Positions 2,520 through 13,503 of a stretch of DNA of 30,940 bases are shown here, in pieces. The DNA is from a virus, in IMG/VR virus record IMGVR_UViG_3300027668_000060, positions 1 through 30,940 of that record; one strand, written 5' to 3'. The position numbers and the translations under genes were made by a program. The notes below the pieces were generated by a model. That model made no database searches and was not told the origin of the DNA. It was given only the letters and a program-made list of their open reading frames with translations. The stretch's first letter is position 1; every line of letters begins with the position of its first letter.

Positions 2520-3380
2520 ATGCAAAATTTAGTAGCTAAGAAACGTGGAAAGACATCTAAGGCAACAAAGATAATTGAGATTATCGACGATGCAGTAGAC
2601 AATCCAAATGAGTCCGATGCAGAAATTATCGAACGCATGCGTGAACGTTTTAGTATTCTAGATGATATGACACAAGCGTCAATTGACGGTGTTGTACGTG
2701 GAATGGTTGTTACAGGACCTCCAGGTGTTGGTAAAAGTTTTGGTGTAGAAGCCGTGTTGGAAAAGAACAGTTTGTTTGATAAACTTGCTGGTAATAGAAT
2801 GCGTTTTGAAGTTATCAAAGGTGCCAGTAGTGCAATTGGTTTGTATAAGGTACTTTATAATAATGCAGATCGTAACAGCGTTCTTGTGTTAGATGATTGT
2901 GATACAGTATTGTATGATGAGACAAGTCTTAACTTGCTTAAAGCAGCATTAGACTCAAGTAAAAAACGTACTTTAAATTGGAATACAGATAGTGCATTGT
3001 TACGCCGAGAAGGTATTCCAGATGCATTTGAATTTAAAGGTAGTGTTATCTTTATTACTAACCTTAAATTTGATAAGGTACGTGGTAAGATTAAAGATCA
3101 CTTAGAGGCTATTATGTCACGTTGTCACTATTTAGATCTTACAATGGATACTACACGTGAAAAGGTATTGCGTTGCAGACAGATTGTTGCAGATGGTATG
3201 CTTGAAGAATATAACTTCACTACAGAAGAAACCAGTCAGCTAATGGAATTTATGGTTGATAATAAAGAAAAGATGCGTGAAATTAGTTTGCGTATGGTAA
3301 CTAAACTTGCAGACCTTAAGAGGTCAATGGGTGCAAAGTGGATGCGTACTGCAGAAGTTACATGTATGCGTCGACGTTAA
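2520..3380 (+). CDS. AAA+ family ATPase
   Basis: A 286-residue single-domain ATPase. Walker A GPPGVGKS is at residues 66-73, Walker B VLVLDD at 121-126, and a sensor-1-type FITN at 178-181. Arg201 in MSRCHYLDL is a candidate arginine finger, and a helical C-terminal lid follows. The N-terminus (to about 50) is basic then acidic and lacks a recognisable accessory domain. It could be a replication, recombination or partner-remodelling ATPase; the clamp-loader genes 44/62 are a different family and not meant here. It is expressed alone from P3 and closed by a strong terminator. The AAA+ assignment is firm; the role is unknown. Confidence 0.85.
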   Translation: MQNLVAKKRGKTSKATKIIEIIDDAVDNPNESDAEIIERMRERFSILDDMTQASIDGVVRGMVVTGPPGVGKSFGVEAVLEKNSLFDKLAGNRMRFEVIKGASSAIGLYKVLYNNADRNSVLVLDDCDTVLYDETSLNLLKAALDSSKKRTLNWNTDSALLRREGIPDAFEFKGSVIFITNLKFDKVRGKIKDHLEAIMSRCHYLDLTMDTTREKVLRCRQIVADGMLEEYNFTTEETSQLMEFMVDNKEKMREISLRMVTKLADLKRSMGAKWMRTAEVTCMRRR

Positions 3381-3810: not shown

Positions 3811-5265
3811 ATGAACTGTACAATAGTAATTAAAGACGAAGTAAACTGTAAAATCGAAGGTCTCGATTTAAACACCCGCAAAAAATGTGAAAAGGAATTA
3901 AAGTTCTTTATGCCTTACGCATTTCATGTACCAGCATACAAGTTAGGTAGATGGGATGGATGTGTAAGCTTCTTTAGCGTTGGTGGAGTAACATATGTTA
4001 ATCTACTTGATAGGTTGTTGCCTATTATTATGGATAACGGTTATTCTATTGCAGTAGACGATAAACGTGAATCAACTGAATCATATGAATTTAGTGCAGT
4101 AGATGAATCTACGTTTGCACATAAAGTTTGGCCAGAAAAGCATCAGATGGTCGGTGAGCCAGTTGTACTCAGAGATTATCAAATTACTATTGTTAATAAA
4201 TTTTTAACTACACCACAATGCTTACAAGAAATTGCAACAGGTGCAGGTAAAACATTAATCACAGCAGCACTATCTGAGCGTGTAGAGCAATATGGAAGAT
4301 CAATTGTAATTGTACCTAATAAAGACTTGGTACGACAAACATATGATGATTACCTCAACTTAGGACTAGACGTTGGAGTTTACTTTGGCGATAAAAAACA
4401 ATTAGGAAAAACCCATACAATTTGCACTTGGCAAAGTTTAAACAGTATTAAGAAACGATTCAGAGATGGCGTTGACGATATGAGTTTACGAGAGTTCTCA
4501 GATGGTGTTGTTTGTGTTATTGTTGACGAGGTTCACCAAGCAAAAGCAGATGTGTTAAAAGACATGCTCACTAAGGAATTCGCACATATTCCATTACGTT
4601 GGGGATTAACAGGAACTATACCAAAAGAAGAACATGCTAAAACAAGTTTACAAGCATGTCTTGGTGAAGTTACAAACAAACTAAGTGCAAGTGAATTACA
4701 AGACATGGGCGTATTAAGTAACTGTCATGTTAACGTAGTTCAATTAAAAGAAACAGCAATATACAATGATTACCAAAGTGAATTAAAATATTTAACAACA
4801 GACAAAGCACGTATGAAGTATCTAAGTAAGTTTATTCAAACAGTTGCTGAATCGGGTAATACACTTGTATTAGTTGACAGGATTGCAAGTGGTGAGATTA
4901 TTGCTGAAAATATACCTGGTGTTACTTTTGTGAAAGGTGCTATGAAAGTCACTGACAGAAAAGAAGCGTATGATGAAATTAATGAAGCAACTAATAGTAT
5001 TACTGTCGCAACCTATGGCGTAGCAGCAGTTGGTATTAATATTCCACGTATCTTTAACATGATACTTCTTGAACCTGGGAAGTCGTTTGTTAGAGTTATC
5101 CAGTCAATTGGGCGTGGAGTAAGAAAGGCGGAAGACAAGGACTTTGTTCAGATTTGGGATGTAACTAGTACAGCTAAGTTTAGCAAAAAGCATCTTACTG
5201 AACGTAAGAAATTTTATAAAGAAGCGAATTATCCTTTCACAATTGAAAAGACGGATTGGCGTTAA
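3811..5265 (+). CDS. uvsW: UvsW-type SF2 DNA helicase
   Basis: A 484-residue superfamily-2 helicase (T4 UvsW is 502). The N-terminal about 115 residues form the UvsW-type accessory domain (KFFMPYAFHVPAYKLGRWDG). Motif I ATGAGKT is at 142-148, motif II DEVH at 239-242, motif III TGT at 267-269 and motif VI QSIGRGVRK at 431-439. UvsW unwinds D-loops and R-loops, promotes branch migration, and helps shift T4 from origin- to recombination-dependent replication. The promoter places +1 on the ATG, so the mRNA is probably leaderless. The start is supported by the N-terminal domain beginning at once. Confidence 0.93.
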   Translation: MNCTIVIKDEVNCKIEGLDLNTRKKCEKELKFFMPYAFHVPAYKLGRWDGCVSFFSVGGVTYVNLLDRLLPIIMDNGYSIAVDDKRESTESYEFSAVDESTFAHKVWPEKHQMVGEPVVLRDYQITIVNKFLTTPQCLQEIATGAGKTLITAALSERVEQYGRSIVIVPNKDLVRQTYDDYLNLGLDVGVYFGDKKQLGKTHTICTWQSLNSIKKRFRDGVDDMSLREFSDGVVCVIVDEVHQAKADVLKDMLTKEFAHIPLRWGLTGTIPKEEHAKTSLQACLGEVTNKLSASELQDMGVLSNCHVNVVQLKETAIYNDYQSELKYLTTDKARMKYLSKFIQTVAESGNTLVLVDRIASGEIIAENIPGVTFVKGAMKVTDRKEAYDEINEATNSITVATYGVAAVGINIPRIFNMILLEPGKSFVRVIQSIGRGVRKAEDKDFVQIWDVTSTAKFSKKHLTERKKFYKEANYPFTIEKTDWR

Positions 5266-5789: not shown

Positions 5790-6248
5790 ATGAGCAAGTT
5801 AAACATTAAAGAAGAAATGAGATCAATCGATCAAAAAGATCGAGGATGGTACGATAGTCTCACTGAAGAAGAAAAGAAGAAACTTGGTCTATGGTTGCTT
5901 ATGCGTTATACAAGTAATGCACAACATTCTTACGCTGAACATTACTTAGAATGGACTAACGAAGCAGTTAACGTGCATTTTAATGCAATTAGAAAGCACC
6001 CACAGTTACAGTATCAGTTGTTACAATTAGTTGGAGTAGGTACTACAGTATTCCATGGATGGATTGCACCTGGTAAAGCACAAAAGAAAAACAAATTACA
6101 AAGCTGGCTAACTGAACACTACTCACATTTAAATGATGACGAAATAGACATTATGTTAAGCAGTAGCAAAGATGAAATTAAAGCACTATTACACGAATAC
6201 GGATTAAAAGATAAAGAAATAAAAGATCTAATTGGTAAACTTAAATGA
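5790..6248 (+). CDS. Hypothetical protein, replication region
   Basis: A 152-residue protein beginning LNIKEEMRSIDQKDRGWYDSLTEEEKKKLGLWLLMRYTS, with a conserved-looking HPQLQYQLLQLVGVG...FHGWIAP core and a helical, charged tail ending DLIGKLK. The style is that of an unnamed protein common in marine T4-like phages. No enzyme motif is visible. Its stop overlaps the next ATG (ATGA at 6245-6248), and the chain of overlaps continues to 7497, so three genes form one translationally coupled unit from the promoter at 5755. Confidence 0.75.
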   Translation: MSKLNIKEEMRSIDQKDRGWYDSLTEEEKKKLGLWLLMRYTSNAQHSYAEHYLEWTNEAVNVHFNAIRKHPQLQYQLLQLVGVGTTVFHGWIAPGKAQKKNKLQSWLTEHYSHLNDDEIDIMLSSSKDEIKALLHEYGLKDKEIKDLIGKLK

Positions 6249-6925
6249 CAGTAGGCTTTAAATGCGAATATTGTAACAACACATTTAAACGTGAAAGCAC
6301 TATGGCAGTTCATATGTGTGAACGCAAGCGCAGATACATGAGTAAAGATGACAAAGAAGTGCAACTAGCATATAGGTCATATCAACTGTTTTATAGAATA
6401 GGAACAAACGCTAAAAGTGAAAAAAGTTTTGATGATTTTGCATCAAGTCAATATTATACAGCATTTGTAAAGTATGCAAAATACTGTATTGACTTACGGG
6501 TAGATGATGTTCCTGAATACACACGTTGGTTACTAAAGAATCAAGTAAGAATAGATAGATGGACAAGCGATAGAAACTTTGCGGCTTGGATTAAGACTAG
6601 ACTAAAAACAGAAAGTGCAGATAGAGCAATAGAAAGAACTATATTGTTTATGCGAGAATGGGGCAACGAAACTAACAATGATTGGAACGAATACTTCCGT
6701 CTAGTAGCGCCAAATCTTGCTGTATTTCACATATGTAGTGGTAGGATTAGCCCATGGATAATATACGCAAGTTCGCAAGCACAAGGGCTATTAGAGAAGC
6801 TCACAAGCGAACAAATACAGATGGTTACAGATTATATAGATCCTTATTATTGGCAAAGAGTTACACAAACACATGCTGAAGATTTTAAGTGGGTTGAAGG
6901 AATAATGGAAGAGGCACATTTATGA
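6245..6925 (+). CDS. C2H2-type zinc-finger protein, replication region
   Basis: A 226-residue protein. Residues 7-26 read CEYCNNTFKRESTMAVHMC: the spacing C-x2-C-x12-H-x-C is a C2H2/C2HC zinc finger rather like eukaryotic-style fingers. The remaining about 190 residues are helical and Trp/Tyr-rich (YTRWLLKNQVRIDRW, FMREWGNETNNDWNEYF, YIDPYYWQRV) with no enzyme motif. The start ATG overlaps the previous stop, and its own stop overlaps the following ATG. A nucleic-acid-binding or protein-bridging replication role is inferred from the finger and from lying between UvsW and the primase/helicase. Confidence 0.78.
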   Translation: MTVGFKCEYCNNTFKRESTMAVHMCERKRRYMSKDDKEVQLAYRSYQLFYRIGTNAKSEKSFDDFASSQYYTAFVKYAKYCIDLRVDDVPEYTRWLLKNQVRIDRWTSDRNFAAWIKTRLKTESADRAIERTILFMREWGNETNNDWNEYFRLVAPNLAVFHICSGRISPWIIYASSQAQGLLEKLTSEQIQMVTDYIDPYYWQRVTQTHAEDFKWVEGIMEEAHL

Positions 6926-7497
6926 TAGCAAATACAGATATTGACATTGACGTTGCAGATAGAACTAAGTTGTTAAACTTAATTAAACATACTCCTGCAA
7001 TGATTAACGATAATGGCAGACGCAAGAAACACAACACTGGTGTATACTTCCATGAAATGCCAAGTGATCCATTTACAGGGTTAAGCACAATAGATCACAA
7101 AGAAGCAGAGTCTAAAGGTTACTTTAAACTAGATGTACTTAACGTAAGTCTTTACAAGGATGTTGAAAGTTATGAGCAATTGGATGAATTGCTTGAAATG
7201 GAACCTATGTGGGATTTATTGGAGCATGCAGAAATAGTAGAAAAATTATTTCACATACATGCACATTATAATATTGTATCTAAGATGAAGCCTACTACGA
7301 TAGAACAGCTTGCAGCAGTATTGGCAATTATTAGACCAGCTAAACGTAGTCTGTTAGGTAAAGACTGGAATACAGTATTCTCAACAGTTTGGGAAAAGCC
7401 CACAGATGGTACATATTACTTTAAAAAAGCACACGCAATAAGTTATGCAATGGCTATTGTATTACAGCTTAATATGTTAGTTAAAGGTTCTTCTTAA
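6922..7497 (+). CDS. Miniature DNA polymerase III alpha (DnaE/PolC)-like protein
   Basis: A 191-residue protein carrying a compressed series of C-family polymerase motifs. N-terminal TDIDIDVADR (residues 5-14) resembles the PDFDVDF motif that bears two catalytic Asp in DnaE. YFKLDVLNVSLYKDV (67-81, Asp71) resembles KFDFLGLRTL, which bears the third. KPTTIEQLAAVLAIIRPAK (123-141) resembles the P-x4-DL-x-A-x2-AL-x-RPG helix. YFKKAHAISYAM (166-177) resembles FNKSHAxAYA. DnaE is over 1000 residues, so exonuclease, most of the fingers and the clamp-binding parts are absent. Activity is doubtful; a regulatory or partner role is possible. The 3' end overlaps the convergent - strand gene. Confidence 0.72.
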   Translation: MIANTDIDIDVADRTKLLNLIKHTPAMINDNGRRKKHNTGVYFHEMPSDPFTGLSTIDHKEAESKGYFKLDVLNVSLYKDVESYEQLDELLEMEPMWDLLEHAEIVEKLFHIHAHYNIVSKMKPTTIEQLAAVLAIIRPAKRSLLGKDWNTVFSTVWEKPTDGTYYFKKAHAISYAMAIVLQLNMLVKGSS

Positions 7498-7852
7498 TAA
7501 GACTAATATTACGGCGTTTAATACGTTTAGTAATACTATCACTTAATCTCACCTCAGGTCCAGCAATAACTTCCATTTGTTTTATATTAAAACTTTGACT
7601 AGTCTTGCTAAACGGCCATCTATTTAGTAGTGCGATATTAATAGGTAATTTTCTATTTGTCTCCCACCACCATTCGTCACCTAATCTTAAAAAAGACTGA
7701 CGCTCTTCATTTGTTCCAATTCTATCGTAGACATACATAGTAGCTATGTGGTTGTCTATGTTCTGCATTATTCCCAGATATTCATTACCAGCATATTCAA
7801 TGACAGTAAGGAAAGGAAATTCTTTTAACAGTGTTTTATATTTTTCAATCAT
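7481..7852 (-). CDS. Convergent hypothetical protein (only clear minus-strand gene)
   Basis: A 123-residue protein if started at ATG 7852; an in-frame ATG at 7909 would add 19 low-quality residues (KPPGKKLINICT) and overlaps the opposite promoter. The core EYAGNEYLGIMQN...YVYDRIGTNEERQSFLRLGDEWWWETNRKLPIN and the basic end ITKRIKRRNISLIKK have a conserved look that I associate with marine T4-like phages, so it is real rather than an antisense shadow. There is no Shine-Dalgarno before 7852. Its stop overlaps the end of the mini-DnaE gene by 17 nt, tail to tail. Function unknown. Confidence 0.75.
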   Translation of the reverse strand: MIEKYKTLLKEFPFLTVIEYAGNEYLGIMQNIDNHIATMYVYDRIGTNEERQSFLRLGDEWWWETNRKLPINIALLNRWPFSKTSQSFNIKQMEVIAGPEVRLSDSITKRIKRRNISLIKKNL

Positions 7853-7860
7853 TGTACATA

Positions 7861-7867
7861 TATTTAT
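7861..7867 (-). promoter_or_regulatory. Possible late-type promoter for the minus-strand gene
   Basis: On the - strand ATAAATA reads from 7867 to 7861, nine bases before ATG 7852. This would give a leader of only a few nucleotides, in keeping with the missing Shine-Dalgarno. A single AT-rich 7-mer is weak evidence in this genome. Confidence 0.3.
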
Positions 7868-7899
7868 TAATTTTTTTCCCGGTGGTTTTTGTGATTTGC

Positions 7900-7907
7900 A
7901 TAAATAC
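7900..7907 (+). promoter_or_regulatory. T4-type late promoter ATAAATAC
   Basis: ATAAATAC at 7900-7907, 19 nt before ATG 7926, with AGGAG (7914-7918) in the short leader. T4 late promoters use TATAAATA at -10 and no -35, read by gp55 with gp33 and the sliding clamp. The same octamer occurs at 11170, 16967 and 21295, always upstream of a structural-type gene. Confidence 0.75.
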
Positions 7908-7925
7908 ATACACAGGAGAACATGA

Positions 7926-8756: not shown

Positions 8757-9764
8757 ATGAGCTTAATGATTGACTATGTTAGAAATCTGATTCCGATGAA
8801 CTGGAAACCTAGCCCTAGCGGCTGGACCTCTGGTAATTGTCCTATGTGTATAACTAATGGACAAGCCCGCCCAGACACACGTGGACGAGGTGGATTCCAC
8901 TTCGATGAGGATAAGTTTCAATATCATTGTTTTAACTGTCATTACAAAACAGGATGGAGCCCAGGCAATAAAGTTAATAATAGGCTAAAGGACTTGTTAC
9001 TAAAATTTGGTGCAGATGAAGCATCAGTTCAGCGTATGCAATTAGAGCTTATGCGTGAACTTGATATTACACATACATTGTTAGTACAAGAACGTAGAAA
9101 AAAGCTAGTAATTGATTGGGCAGAAACAGCATTGCCAGAAGGCACACTGCCTTTTATGGAACATACTCCAGATACTAATTGGACAGAAGCAGTAAAATAC
9201 TTAACTGAACGAGGATTTGATATAACAGATCCTAGACTAATGTATAGTCCTTCTAAAATACCAGCTAGAATGTCAAAGCGTTTTGTAATACCATTTCAAT
9301 ATAAAGGCAAAGTGGTTGGATACACAGGACGTTGGATTGGCACCCCACCAGACGGTATGCCTAAGTATTATAATCAACAGCCTTCTAAAAACTTTGTTTA
9401 TGGGTTAGATAGACAACACGCAGATAAAGAAATTGTTATATTGACAGAAGGCCCATTAGATGCTATAATAACAGATGGAATCAGTGCTGGAACAAACACA
9501 ATTAGTGATGAACAAGCAGACGTTATTTTAAGTTTAAATAAACAAATTATTGTATTACCAGATGCAGACGAAGCAGGAATGAAGATGGTAGATGCAGCAG
9601 TTAAACACGGGTGGAGTGTTGCATTTCCTGAATGGGATGATTGTAACGATGCAGGTGATGCATTAATGAAATACGGCAGATTATTTACAGTACGTAGTAT
9701 ACTAGACAGTGCTATAAGTAATCCTACTAAGATACAAGTTATTGGAAGGAAATATTGCAGATGA
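8757..9764 (+). CDS. 61: DNA primase, T4 gp61 type
   Basis: A 335-residue primase (T4 gp61 is 342). The N-terminal zinc ribbon uses Cys28, Cys31, Cys58 and Cys61 (CPMC...CFNC). A TOPRIM-type catalytic core follows, with Glu231 in LTEGPLDAI and the DxD pair in LPDADEAGMK (Asp269, Asp271). Gp61 makes RNA primers for the lagging strand and works as part of the primosome with gp41. The gene overlaps the next start by ATGA (9761-9764), so primase and helicase are translationally coupled. The promoter at 8722 places +1 at or next to its ATG. A second perfect promoter lies inside it at 9441. Confidence 0.93.
   Translation: MSLMIDYVRNLIPMNWKPSPSGWTSGNCPMCITNGQARPDTRGRGGFHFDEDKFQYHCFNCHYKTGWSPGNKVNNRLKDLLLKFGADEASVQRMQLELMRELDITHTLLVQERRKKLVIDWAETALPEGTLPFMEHTPDTNWTEAVKYLTERGFDITDPRLMYSPSKIPARMSKRFVIPFQYKGKVVGYTGRWIGTPPDGMPKYYNQQPSKNFVYGLDRQHADKEIVILTEGPLDAIITDGISAGTNTISDEQADVILSLNKQIIVLPDADEAGMKMVDAAVKHGWSVAFPEWDDCNDAGDALMKYGRLFTVRSILDSAISNPTKIQVIGRKYCR
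9441..9469 (+). promoter_or_regulatory. Exact-consensus sigma70 promoter inside the primase gene
   Basis: TTGACA 9441-9446, exactly 17 bp, TATAAT 9464-9469, lying over the codons of the primase TOPRIM motif. It would start transcription near 9476, about 285 nt before the helicase ATG, and could give extra gp41 mRNA. It is constrained by coding, so chance cannot be excluded, but both boxes and the spacing are perfect. Confidence 0.5.
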
Positions 9765-11158
9765 GTGAACAAAAAGAATATACATACGAACTACAGAAAT
9801 TATTTGTAGAGTTTTTAGCACATGATCAGGATTTGTTTGTTCGTGTAAATGGTATATGTGATCCAGAGTTCTTTACAAGAGAACTACGTAAGACAGTAGA
9901 GTTTATTCAAGCACATGCAAACGATTATGGTGCATTACCTACAAGTGAACAAATTGTAGCAACAACAGGTATGGAGCTACAAAATTTAACTGATGTAGAT
10001 GCAAGACACGATGATTGGTTCATTGACGAGTTCGAAACATTCTGTAAACACAAAGCATTAGAAAAAGCAATTTTAAGTTCGACAGATTTACTTGAGCAAG
10101 GTGAATTTGGTGCAGTAGAGTTAATGATTAAAGAAGCAGTAGGTATTGGGCTTGCTAAACACCTAGGAATAGACTATTGGGCAAACCCATTAGAACGTAT
10201 TGAAAAAGTACGCAACACAAGAGGCGGAACAAGTACAGGTTGGACTGAAATAGATAAAAAACTTTATGGCGGATTTAACAGAGGTGAATTAAACATATTT
10301 GCTGCACCGTCAGGTGGTGGTAAGAGTTTGTTCTTGCAAAACTTAGCATTAAACTGGGCATTAGATGGAAAGAATGTATTGTATATTAGTTTGGAACTTA
10401 GTGAAGAACTATGTAGTATGCGACTTGATAGTATGTTAACAGGCTATAACACAAAAGAAGTATTTAAAAACGCAGAAGATGTTGGATTAAAAGTAGGAGC
10501 AATTAGTAAAAAAGCGGGTAACCTACAAATTGTGCAAATGCCAAATGGCATAACAATTAATGACGTAAATAGTTTTATGAAAGAGTATGAAGTAAAACAT
10601 AATATTAAATTAGATGCAGTATTACTTGATTATTTAGATTTAATGATGCCAGCACAACGTAAAGTTCCACCAAGTGACTTGTTTATTAAAGATAAATTTG
10701 TATCAGAAGAATTGCGTAACTTTGCAGTAGAAAAAGATTTATTGTTTGCAACAGCATCTCAGTTAAACAGGGCAGCAGTTGAAGAAGTAGAGTTTGACCA
10801 CTCGCACATTGCAGGTGGTATTAGTAAGATTCAAACAGCAGATAACGTAATTGGTATCTTTACAAGTACAGCAATGCGAGAACGTGGACGTTATCAAATA
10901 CAATTTATGAAAACACGTAGTAGTGCTGGCGTTGGACAAAAAGTAGACTTAGCATTTGATATTGCAGGACTACGTATAACAGACTTGCCGGAAGACGAGC
11001 AGGGTTCAACTACATTTCAACCTAGTGCAATGCTAGATAAGATTAAAAGAAACACAAATGTAACACACCAAGAAAAAACAATAGCAGAAGAAAGTATAAT
11101 TGAAGACACGGCTGCCACGGATAGACTGCGTAGTATGTTGAAAAAAGTCAACAAATAA
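9761..11158 (+). CDS. 41: Replicative DNA helicase, T4 gp41 (DnaB) type
   Basis: A 465-residue RecA-fold hexameric helicase (T4 gp41 is 475). I chose ATG 9761, with GGAAGGA at 9744-9750, over the in-frame TTG 9755. The N-terminal helical domain (1-150) is followed by RGGTSTGWTEIDKKLYGGFNRGELNIF, Walker A APSGGGKS at 182-189, LYISLELSEE, and Walker B-type LDAVLLDYLDLM. The SQLNR...HIAGGISKIQTADNVIGIF region and MKTRSSAGVG complete the DnaB-family motif set. It unwinds the lagging-strand template 5' to 3' at the fork and binds gp61. It is coupled to primase by an ATGA overlap and followed by a late promoter. Confidence 0.94.
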   Translation: MSEQKEYTYELQKLFVEFLAHDQDLFVRVNGICDPEFFTRELRKTVEFIQAHANDYGALPTSEQIVATTGMELQNLTDVDARHDDWFIDEFETFCKHKALEKAILSSTDLLEQGEFGAVELMIKEAVGIGLAKHLGIDYWANPLERIEKVRNTRGGTSTGWTEIDKKLYGGFNRGELNIFAAPSGGGKSLFLQNLALNWALDGKNVLYISLELSEELCSMRLDSMLTGYNTKEVFKNAEDVGLKVGAISKKAGNLQIVQMPNGITINDVNSFMKEYEVKHNIKLDAVLLDYLDLMMPAQRKVPPSDLFIKDKFVSEELRNFAVEKDLLFATASQLNRAAVEEVEFDHSHIAGGISKIQTADNVIGIFTSTAMRERGRYQIQFMKTRSSAGVGQKVDLAFDIAGLRITDLPEDEQGSTTFQPSAMLDKIKRNTNVTHQEKTIAEESIIEDTAATDRLRSMLKKVNK

Positions 11159-11207: not shown

Positions 11208-11456
11208 ATGAAAAAGAGAACACGTAGTTTATTAGAAGAGATTAATAGTTTAGCACCTTCTAAGGACAGAATTAATATATTAGAGTCCAGAGGCACAAAT
11301 GCCATTAGCGCAATTATGAACGTACTAGAGATGGTGGATGCAAACTATAGTGACGAAGATGCCCAAGATATACAAAAAAGAATAATGCTTAGTATTAAAA
11401 ATAGAGATCCTGAACGTTTTAATAGAGGTATTAAGAATCTAAGGAATAAAAGATGA
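11208..11456 (+). CDS. Small basic helical hypothetical protein, first gene of a late operon
   Basis: An 82-residue charged helical protein (TRSLLEEINSLAPSKDRINILESRGTNAISAI...DPERFNRGIKNLRNKR). It has AGGAG 9 nt before the start and overlaps the following ATG (ATGA at 11453-11456). I associate this pattern, N-terminal TRSLLEEI and C-terminal FxRGIxxL, with an unnamed protein of T4-like cyanophages, but cannot name a function. Its coupling to the nucleotidyltransferase gene hints at a shared task. Confidence 0.75.
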   Translation: MKKRTRSLLEEINSLAPSKDRINILESRGTNAISAIMNVLEMVDANYSDEDAQDIQKRIMLSIKNRDPERFNRGIKNLRNKR

Positions 11457-12388
11457 ATATCAAAGATATTGTAGGTACAGTTAAACGGAAAGCACGTGAT
11501 AGTAGAAAACATCGCAAGATCCAGCCTGATAACTTATATAAAGTAAACACTAAAAAGTTGTCAGAAGGCGGAGCAATGCCAGGTGTTGGATCAATTCACC
11601 ATACTGAGATTGATGCTACAATAGATGCATTAGAAAAGTCATTGGGTATTCCACTTAAAAATAACGTATTAGGATCAGTAGGCAAAAAAGAATTTAGTGG
11701 CGACATAGACATTGCAGTTGATATTCCAAAAGAAGAATTGCCTGCATTTGCAGAGAAACTAGAAAAGTCACCACTGGTACAAGAAATAAAAAAGTCTAGT
11801 GTGTTTATGACAGTAATTGATATTGTTGGTTATAATGCAGAAAATACTAAAGACGGATTAAAGCGTACAGGTAAAGTACAAATTGACTTTATGCCAGGTG
11901 AAACAGAATGGATGAAAACTTATTACCATTCTCCACACGAAAAAAGCATGAGTCCAGATGGTCGTTCTAGCAATTACAAAGGAACGTTTCGTAATATCTA
12001 CTTAGCAACAATAGCAGGTGTTTACCAATCAACTAGATCCGAAGAAGAGAACGAACATGGACGACCATTACAACAAATGCGTTGGATATGGAGCCCAGCA
12101 GATGGACAGTGGTGGATTAAACGTGAACCTAAGCCTAAGGCAAACGGAGAAGGTTATACAAAAGCAAACCTTGATACACGTATTAAAGGACCATTTACAG
12201 ACCCAACTCAAATTGCAAAGAATTTTGGACTAGATAGCGCAGACGATTTATACAGCTTTGAAACATTACTAGCAGCAACAAAGAAAAACTATTCAGCAGA
12301 AGATTTTGCTAAAATAATTGAACTATTTAAAAACAACCATCAAATCCAGTCAATGGGTGTACCTACAGAATTAGAAGGTGATGCATAA
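11453..12388 (+). CDS. Pol-beta-fold nucleotidyltransferase
   Basis: A 311-residue protein. LGSVGKKEFSGDIDIAVD (73-90) is the G-S...D-x-D signature of Pol-beta nucleotidyltransferases (Asp84, Asp86), and VQIDFM (Asp145) supplies the third metal ligand; Gly74-Ser75 is the nucleotide-binding turn. The N-terminus is strongly basic (VKRKARDSRKHRK), suiting nucleic-acid binding. The part after about 160 is unusual and Trp/Lys-rich (MRWIWSPADGQWWIKREPKPK), ending with a helical domain. The family includes CCA-adding enzymes, poly(A) polymerases and MNT toxins/antitoxins; the substrate here is unknown. It lies in a coupled run with a KxDG ligase-like gene directly downstream (1-nt overlap), suggesting RNA end repair. 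Confidence 0.8.
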   Translation: MNIKDIVGTVKRKARDSRKHRKIQPDNLYKVNTKKLSEGGAMPGVGSIHHTEIDATIDALEKSLGIPLKNNVLGSVGKKEFSGDIDIAVDIPKEELPAFAEKLEKSPLVQEIKKSSVFMTVIDIVGYNAENTKDGLKRTGKVQIDFMPGETEWMKTYYHSPHEKSMSPDGRSSNYKGTFRNIYLATIAGVYQSTRSEEENEHGRPLQQMRWIWSPADGQWWIKREPKPKANGEGYTKANLDTRIKGPFTDPTQIAKNFGLDSADDLYSFETLLAATKKNYSAEDFAKIIELFKNNHQIQSMGVPTELEGDA

Positions 12389-13503
12389 TGTTTATTAAAG
12401 ATATATTAATGGAAAAAGCCGGTAGTGCTAGAATTCAGCACTTAGAAGATTTAATTCTTTGGAACGGTAAAGCAGGTGCTCAAAAAGCAATATCATCATT
12501 ACACAGTTTAGAAAGCAACCCAGGCGATACTACTATTAAATGGGATGGCTCACCAGCTGTTATCTTTGGTCGTAATGAAAACGGTGAATTTATACTTACA
12601 GATAAAAGTGGATTTGGTGCTAAAGGATATGATGGTAAAGCAACATCAGCAGATAACTTAGAGAACATGTTAAAGAATCGTCCTGGTTACGAAAAGAACC
12701 CACAAGAATATGGCGGCTTTATTAACCAAATGAAAGCAGCATGGCCTGCATTTGAACAAGCAACACCAAGCGACTTTAGAGGTTATGTACATGGTGATTT
12801 ACTTTGGTTTACAACACCACAAGCAAGTGATGGTAAATTAGTATTCACTCCAAACACAACACAGTATTCAGTTAATCCTGCAAGCGATATTGGTAAGAAA
12901 ATTGCCAGTAGTACAGTAGGTGTTGTGCTACACGCACATATGGACTTAGAAGGTAATAAGAGTAAAGTAGATGCAACTAGATTCCAAGCAGGTCCATTGC
13001 TAGCAATGCCACCACAAACTGTAACTGAAGTTCCAGACATTGAAAGTGCTAAATTAAAAGAACTTGAAAACTTTGTTAACGCAGCAGGAAGTGATATTGA
13101 TGCAGTATTAGCACCGCCTGCAGAACTTAAAATGAAGAACTTTCCAGATATTTTATATATGTATATGAACCATACAGCAAAAACAAGAACATCAAATAAA
13201 ATTGGTAGTAAGAACTTTGTACAATGGTTAACAGCAGATGGTTCTAAAGTTAGTAGTGCTAAACAAGGCAGACTTGTAGAATACTTAAAGCAACACCAAA
13301 AAGGATTAGATGCTATATTTGCATTTATGCGTAGCATTGGGCCAATCAAAGATAATATTATAGCACAACTTGATGCAAACCCAGCTGACATTGAAGCAAG
13401 CACAGGCGGGCAAAAAGGTGGCGAAGGATATGTAATAGGAAAAGATGTTAAGTTAGTAAATCGTCAAGGGTTTACAGCTTCAAACATGGAAAAAAATAAT
13501 TAA
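12388..13503 (+). CDS. Ligase-like covalent nucleotidyltransferase (KxDG; DUF6267-like)
   Basis: A 371-residue protein with the motif order of ATP-dependent ligases. Motif I is KWDGSPAV (51-58, candidate nucleophile Lys51) preceded by TT. A motif III-like GYVHGDLLWF (132-141) has Asp137 where ligases usually have Glu. EGYVIG and KDVKLVNR near the C-terminus look like motifs IV and V. The layout resembles the DUF6267 proteins of large T4-like vibriophages. It probably binds ATP covalently and joins or caps nucleic-acid ends; an RNA ligase is most likely given the neighbouring Pol-beta nucleotidyltransferase. Motif spacing (nearly 300 residues from I to IV) is wide, and ligase activity is unproven. 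Start ATG overlaps the previous TAA. Confidence 0.75.
   Translation: MFIKDILMEKAGSARIQHLEDLILWNGKAGAQKAISSLHSLESNPGDTTIKWDGSPAVIFGRNENGEFILTDKSGFGAKGYDGKATSADNLENMLKNRPGYEKNPQEYGGFINQMKAAWPAFEQATPSDFRGYVHGDLLWFTTPQASDGKLVFTPNTTQYSVNPASDIGKKIASSTVGVVLHAHMDLEGNKSKVDATRFQAGPLLAMPPQTVTEVPDIESAKLKELENFVNAAGSDIDAVLAPPAELKMKNFPDILYMYMNHTAKTRTSNKIGSKNFVQWLTADGSKVSSAKQGRLVEYLKQHQKGLDAIFAFMRSIGPIKDNIIAQLDANPADIEASTGGQKGGEGYVIGKDVKLVNRQGFTASNMEKNN

What the first reader, a model, noticed from the sequence alone, without database searches (positions are those of the whole stretch)
6922..7497. A 191-residue miniature of a DnaE/PolC polymerase in a T4-like phage
Seen: TDIDIDVADR, FKLDVLNVSLYKD, KPTTIEQLAAVLAIIRPAK and YFKKAHAISYAM occur in the same order as the PDFDVDF, KFDFLG, P-x4-DL-x-A...RPG and FNKSHAxAY motifs of bacterial Pol III alpha, but spread over about 175 residues rather than several hundred. 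Known: the three catalytic Asp of C-family polymerases lie in the first two motifs, and all have candidates here (Asp8, Asp10, Asp71). T4-like phages replicate with a B-family polymerase, gp43. Inference: this may be a condensed palm-domain relic, acting as a decoy or partner of host Pol III, or an unusual nucleotidyltransferase.
Basis: partly seen in the sequence, partly recalled or inferred. Interest (0 to 1): 0.78.

Follow-up and report, generated by a model that had tools for sequence, protein, structure and literature searches.

The report
Half of a split phage DNA polymerase
The 191-residue gene is the back half of a stripped-down bacterial-type DNA polymerase that large T4-like phages carry in two separate genes; the catalytic residues are kept, but a 2021 survey already described the split enzyme, so this is a new member of a known and still untested family.

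Summary
The ORF at 6922-7497 has a C-family (DnaE-type) polymerase palm plus a trimmed fingers segment: colinear profile matches to DnaE, a confident AlphaFold model whose 14 best PDB matches are all C-family polymerases, and invariance in 98 homologues. It is not a self-contained miniature. It begins within a few residues of the PDFDVDF motif and lacks the upstream GRGS nucleotide-binding region. In isolate relatives a second gene, 15-224 kb away, supplies that region and stops at the matching point (E. coli residue 393). Of 60 listed isolate records with the C half, 59 also have the N half; no fused ORF was found. All five relatives checked keep an intact gp43-type replicase, so the pair is probably an accessory two-chain nucleotidyltransferase or polymerase for repair or recombination-dependent replication. 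That function is inferred. The decoy/relic idea fits poorly with dN/dS of 0.05-0.09 and the invariant active site. Iyer et al. 2021 (PMC7824862) already reported this split minimal Pol III alpha. The window adds a metagenomic member; the added details are breakpoint, conservation counts and fold evidence.

The parts
6922..7497 (+). C-terminal half of a split minimal DnaE-type (C-family) DNA polymerase, 191 aa (PHROG_11778)
6937..6951 (+). DIDID = PDFDVDF motif; Asp6 = E. coli D401, Asp8 = D403, Asp10 = D405
   Evidence: alignment; invariant in 98 of 98 homologues
7030..7041 (+). H37-N-T-G40, matches the DnaE 'HAGG' stretch near E. coli H511
   Evidence: H37 and G40 invariant
7126..7134 (+). 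K69-L-D71 = E. coli K553-F-D555, third catalytic aspartate
   Evidence: K69 and D71 invariant
7333..7338 (+). R138-P139 of the KP...LA..LA.IRP fingers motif (E. coli R639-P640)
7420..7434 (+). F167-K-K-A-H171 = DnaE FNKSH; H171 matches the E. coli steric-gate residue H760
   Evidence: H171 98 of 98
6245..6925 (+). Upstream C2H2 zinc-finger protein (PHROG_11058); its stop overlaps the start of the polymerase gene (ATGA), suggesting translational coupling
   Evidence: a C2H2 protein in the same place in PAC2 and G038
7481..7909 (-). Convergent gene of unknown function (PHROG_11637) overlapping the polymerase gene's end by about 17 bases
   Evidence: same arrangement in PAC2, PBECO4 and Phosso and G038
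3811..5265 (+). UvsW-type helicase, part of the conserved replication/recombination neighbourhood
8757..9764 (+). DNA primase (gp61-like)
9755..11158 (+). DnaB-like replicative helicase (gp41-like)

Best explanation
The gene encodes the C-terminal subunit of a two-chain, minimal DnaE-type (C-family) nucleotidyltransferase. An alpha-helical N-terminal subunit of about 170-190 aa, encoded elsewhere in these phages' genomes, brings the GRGS motif that holds the incoming triphosphate. The window protein brings the palm beta-sheet with the two-metal aspartates (Asp6, Asp8, Asp71) and a fingers helix with the steric-gate histidine (His171). The two chains meet at a natural break between E. coli residues about 393 and 396, so together they would rebuild one active site. 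PHP, thumb, central fingers (YQEQ, RRAMGKK), HhH and beta-clamp regions are missing and gp43-type PolB is present, so it is more likely a distributive accessory enzyme for repair or recombination-dependent replication than the replicase. Shown: homology, fold, invariant residues, breakpoint, co-occurrence. Inferred: physical assembly, catalysis, role. Confidence: about 0.95 that it is half of a split DnaE, about 0.75 that the halves assemble into an active enzyme, about 0.5 for the repair/recombination role.
For: Colinear profile matches to DnaE, controls negative. AlphaFold pLDDT 93.0 for this half and 90.1 for a partner; the top 14 and top 12 PDB matches are all C-family polymerases. Partner gene found with PF07733 in five large genomes and above the Pfam cut-off in all five proteins. 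Of 143 distinct N-half ORFs, 128 stop exactly after EFL[KR] and 13 more within 6 residues; C-half ORFs mostly start 1-7 residues before DxDxD; none is fused. 59 of 60 listed isolate records with the C half also have the N half; in IMG/VR contigs of 228 kb or more, 10 of 11 with N have C and 4 of 4 with C have N. D6, D8, D71, H171 invariant in 98 C halves and G146-S150 in 72 N halves. dN/dS 0.05-0.09. gp43 motifs A, B and C intact in five relatives. Same proposal in Iyer et al. 2021.
Against: The N half of the window's own phage was not found; the record is a 30.9-kb fragment. No complex could be modelled and no biochemistry exists. Foldseek E-values are modest (1.8e-3 and 5.6e-3) because only part of a large protein is matched. 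One 288-kb contig has an N half without a detected C half. Missing thumb and central fingers could mean no templated polymerisation.
Confidence: 0.7

Rival explanations
1. The two halves assemble, but into a template-independent or RNA-directed nucleotidyltransferase (end-filling, tailing or nucleotide signalling) rather than a DNA polymerase.
For: The catalytic core is that of the Pol beta-like nucleotidyltransferase superfamily (PMC7824862) and is kept, while thumb and central fingers that grip primer-template and dNTP are absent from the alignment.
Against: His171, matching the DnaE steric gate H760 that contacts the deoxyribose, is invariant. The gene sits between uvsW and primase-helicase in distant relatives, which suggests DNA replication or recombination.
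Confidence: 0.17
2. A catalytically dead relic or a decoy/adaptor that binds the host Pol III holoenzyme (tau, beta clamp, epsilon) through DnaE-like surfaces.
For: Resembles part of host DnaE; gp43-type PolB is present, so a second polymerase is not obviously needed.
Against: Strong purifying selection and invariance at metal-binding, GRGS and steric-gate positions, which a decoy would not need. The tau-, beta- and PHP-containing regions of DnaE are absent: no PHP and no HHH_6 match in ten genomes.
Confidence: 0.08
3. The two halves are parts of a larger multi-chain enzyme, with further DnaE pieces (central fingers or exonuclease) supplied by other phage genes or by gp43 itself.
For: A DnaQ-type exonuclease occurs in some relatives (PMC5259590). 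PolB is itself split in MIJ3, a relative of PA5oct.
Against: RNase_T exonuclease found in only 2 of 6 genomes. A separate fingers piece was not found: PF17657 hits are the C half itself, except in one contig with an unrelated full single-chain DnaE. Not exhaustive.
Confidence: 0.12

Closest known systems
Split minimal DNA polymerase III alpha of 'group 2.2' jumbo phages (Iyer et al. 2021, PMC7824862)
   Same: Same two proteins: an N-terminal NTP-binding and a C-terminal metal/template-binding part, encoded by distant genes, alongside a family B polymerase. The isolates found here (Atu_ph07 and others) belong to that group.
   Different: Nothing essential. The window is a metagenomic member about 52% identical to the isolates in this half. 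Added here: exact breakpoint, counts, invariance, folds, selection.
Bacterial DNA polymerase III alpha (DnaE)
   Same: Palm aspartates D401, D403, D555, the DnaE-specific D405, and steric-gate H760 all have invariant counterparts.
   Different: Split in two; no PHP, thumb, central fingers, (HhH)2, OB or C-terminal domain.
Cyanobacterial split DnaE joined by a split intein
   Same: DnaE encoded as two genes (split by an intein: PMC3919608).
   Different: From established knowledge that split lies at the FNKSH motif and is healed by protein splicing. Here the break is just before PDFDVDF, and the N-half ORFs stop at that point without intein sequence.
Single-chain PHP-less phage DnaE (e.g. 582-aa ORF in L375)
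   Same: Compact C-family core without PHP.
   Different: One chain; retains a RRAFAKK fingers motif.

Membership tests
Split minimal Pol III alpha of jumbo phages (Iyer et al. 2021) | Separate C-terminal protein beginning at the metal-binding motif | tested here: met
   149 distinct C-half ORFs, most starting 1-7 residues before DxDxD
Split minimal Pol III alpha of jumbo phages (Iyer et al. 2021) | Separate, distantly encoded N-terminal NTP-binding protein in the same genome | tested here: inconclusive
   Met in relatives; absent from the window itself, which is a 30.9-kb fragment
Split minimal Pol III alpha of jumbo phages (Iyer et al. 2021) | Accompanied by a family B DNA polymerase | tested here: inconclusive
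   Met in five relatives with intact motifs A, B and C; no gp43 inside the window fragment
C-family (Pol III alpha) polymerases | Three catalytic Asp (E. coli D401, D403, D555), absolutely conserved in the family (PMC3919608) | tested here: met
   Asp6, Asp8, Asp71 invariant in 98 sequences
C-family (Pol III alpha) polymerases | C-family palm fold | tested here: met
   14 best PDB matches are C-family polymerases, probability 1.00 for the first eight
C-family (Pol III alpha) polymerases | PHP, Pol3 and (HhH)2 core on one chain | tested here: not met
   No PHP or HHH_6 match in ten relatives' genomes; pol core split in two
DnaE rather than PolC | Asp at the position of E. coli D405 (Asn in PolC) | tested here: met
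   Asp10 in 98 of 98; an ancestral Asp would look the same
DNA polymerase activity | Templated dNTP incorporation | not testable with these tools
   No biochemistry available

The most novel reading that the evidence does not exclude
A C-family active site assembled from two freely encoded subunits works as a template-dependent second polymerase with only about 360 residues, without thumb or central fingers. It would be the smallest known C-family polymerase, and possibly a survivor of the module from which bacterial Pol III was built (the ancestral reading is that of Iyer et al. 2021).
Probability: 0.2. Interest if true: 0.8.

Novelty: new member of a known kind. Interest (0 to 1): 0.45.

Why it matters
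Jumbo T4-like phages of enterobacteria, Pseudomonas, rhizobia, xanthomonads and many uncultured hosts all keep this pair next to a working PolB, under strong selection, yet nobody has assayed it as far as the searched papers show. If the halves assemble into an enzyme, they define a minimal C-family polymerase, give a natural split site for engineering and structure work, and let the proposal of an ancient minimal Pol III be tested.

Tried and rejected
Single-chain miniature: rejected, because the GRGS half is always a separate gene and no ORF matched both profiles. Split intein or trans-splicing: not supported, because the N-half ORFs stop at the boundary with 0-6 extra residues. DnaQ as a constant partner: rejected as a rule, found in 2 of 6 genomes. 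Third and fourth DnaE pieces: PHP and HHH_6 absent, PF17657 only in the C half itself or in a separate single-chain DnaE. Cellular homologues: 11 hits in GTDB, all in MAG contigs, so probably phage sequence binned with bacteria. Finding the N half of the window's own phage: two further alignment scans gave no contig from the same samples as its near-identical contigs. Raw HMM search of PDB sequences was too weak for this half (E 0.27 or worse for Pol III). Early paper searches missed the 2021 survey; it surfaced and was read. Tree-based dating of the split was not tried: no PolC set was at hand and about 220 alignable columns at about 20% identity would mislead.

Full report
What is in the window. 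The ORF at 6922-7497 (+) encodes 191 aa with all four motif stretches in the order stated. The contig is a 30.9-kb virus record with T4-type genes: UvsY, UvsW, primase, DnaB-like helicase and, read from the sequence, ribonucleotide reductase subunits.

Is it a Pol III alpha relative? Yes. The protein belongs to PHROG_11778 'DNA polymerase'. There are 63 isolate records with a relative and more than 460 stretches in IMG/VR. A profile of 98 homologues aligns to a DnaE family in three colinear pieces. Residues 5-21 match E. coli about 400-418, residues 35-140 match about 509-641, and residues 150-179 match about 738-768 (P 9e-4, 6e-7, 4e-5). Reversed DnaE and gp43 give nothing comparable. AlphaFold gives pLDDT 93.0 and the 14 best PDB matches are all C-family polymerases; a viral structure library gives the same family.

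Which residues? Asp6, Asp8 and Asp71 align with E. coli D401, D403 and D555, which a survey of bacterial C-family polymerases found absolutely conserved (PMC3919608). Asp10 aligns with D405, an Asp in all DnaE groups but Asn in PolC. His171 aligns with H760, the proposed steric gate (PMC8485763). All are invariant in 98 sequences. dN/dS against close relatives is 0.05-0.09.

It is half of an enzyme. Searching five large relatives for PF07733 gave a second small gene in each. These proteins, about 170-184 aa, end in WGVGRGSSVASYVLFLIG..........EFLK, equal to DnaE up to N393, just before PDFDVDF. Profile comparison gives P 6.6e-9; its model (pLDDT 90.1) matches C-family polymerases in its 12 best hits. 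Among 143 distinct N-half ORFs, 128 stop exactly after EFL[KR] and 13 more within 6 residues; one of the remaining two is cut by a contig end and the other ends in DYLK. Most of 149 distinct C-half ORFs start 1-7 residues before DxDxD, and no ORF matches both profiles. C-half ORFs are 182-212 aa apart from a few cut by contig ends.

Do the halves travel together? Of the 60 listed isolate records with the C half, 59 also have the N half; the exception is a 109-kb partial record. In IMG/VR contigs of at least 228 kb, 10 of 11 with an N half have a C half and 4 of 4 with a C half have an N half. Where both positions were compared they are on the same strand, 15-224 kb apart in isolates. Shorter contigs usually carry one half, as expected from the distance.

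Neighbourhood. In PAC2, PBECO4 and Phosso the C half lies between a UvsW-type helicase and primase-helicase, with a convergent gene overlapping its end, as in the window. A C2H2 zinc-finger gene precedes it in the window, PAC2 and G038. The N half lies two genes upstream of a GroES-like gene.

What it probably does. All five checked relatives have gp43-type PolB with motifs A, B and C present, so the pair is unlikely to be the replicase. The alignment leaves no room for thumb or central fingers, and PHP and HHH_6 are absent from ten genomes. The conserved metal and nucleotide sites argue for catalysis. The best reading is a two-chain accessory nucleotidyltransferase or polymerase in repair or recombination-dependent replication. 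Assembly, activity and role are inferences.

What was known. The N half was noted as a truncated Pol III alpha in CBB (PMC5259590) and as an alpha subunit in Atu_ph07 (PMC6102473). Iyer et al. 2021 (PMC7824862) described the split minimal Pol III alpha of group 2.2 jumbo phages, its distant genes, the accompanying PolB, a possible role in strand synthesis or repair, and a pre-LUCA origin. The finding is therefore a new member of a known kind.

Limits. The N half and gp43 of the window's own phage lie outside the fragment. No complex could be modelled here. Co-occurrence in metagenomes rests on contigs of unknown completeness.

Noticed in passing
window 7481-7909 (-): Convergent gene (PHROG_11637, no known function, no Pfam match) whose end overlaps the polymerase gene's end by about 17 bases; the same convergent arrangement recurs in distant relatives.
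   Followed up: partly
L375:721-2469 (contig G038, 338 kb): A 582-aa single-chain PHP-less DnaE (RGSAGSS, PDIDID, RRAFAKK, CRAHA) a few kb from the split C half in a phage that also has the N half; closest isolate-collection match is a 484-kb uncultured phage, LR756508.
   Followed up: partly
window 11453-12388 and 12388-13503: Adjacent genes: the first reads like a Pol-beta-fold nucleotidyltransferase (LGSVGKKEFSGDIDIAVDI) with no Pfam or PHROG match; the second is DUF6267 with a KWDGSP stretch like ligase-type nucleotidyltransferases.
   Followed up: no
window 6245-6925: C2H2 zinc-finger protein (PHROG_11058) overlapping the start of the polymerase gene by ATGA, a possible translationally coupled partner.
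   Followed up: partly
L091-L095: The N-half gene lies two genes upstream of a small GroES-like protein (Cpn10 E 0.0011 in L094, below cut-off) in relatives.
   Followed up: partly
window 2520-3380: AAA+ ATPase of PHROG_1250 with a weak match to DnaC-like helicase loaders.
   Followed up: no
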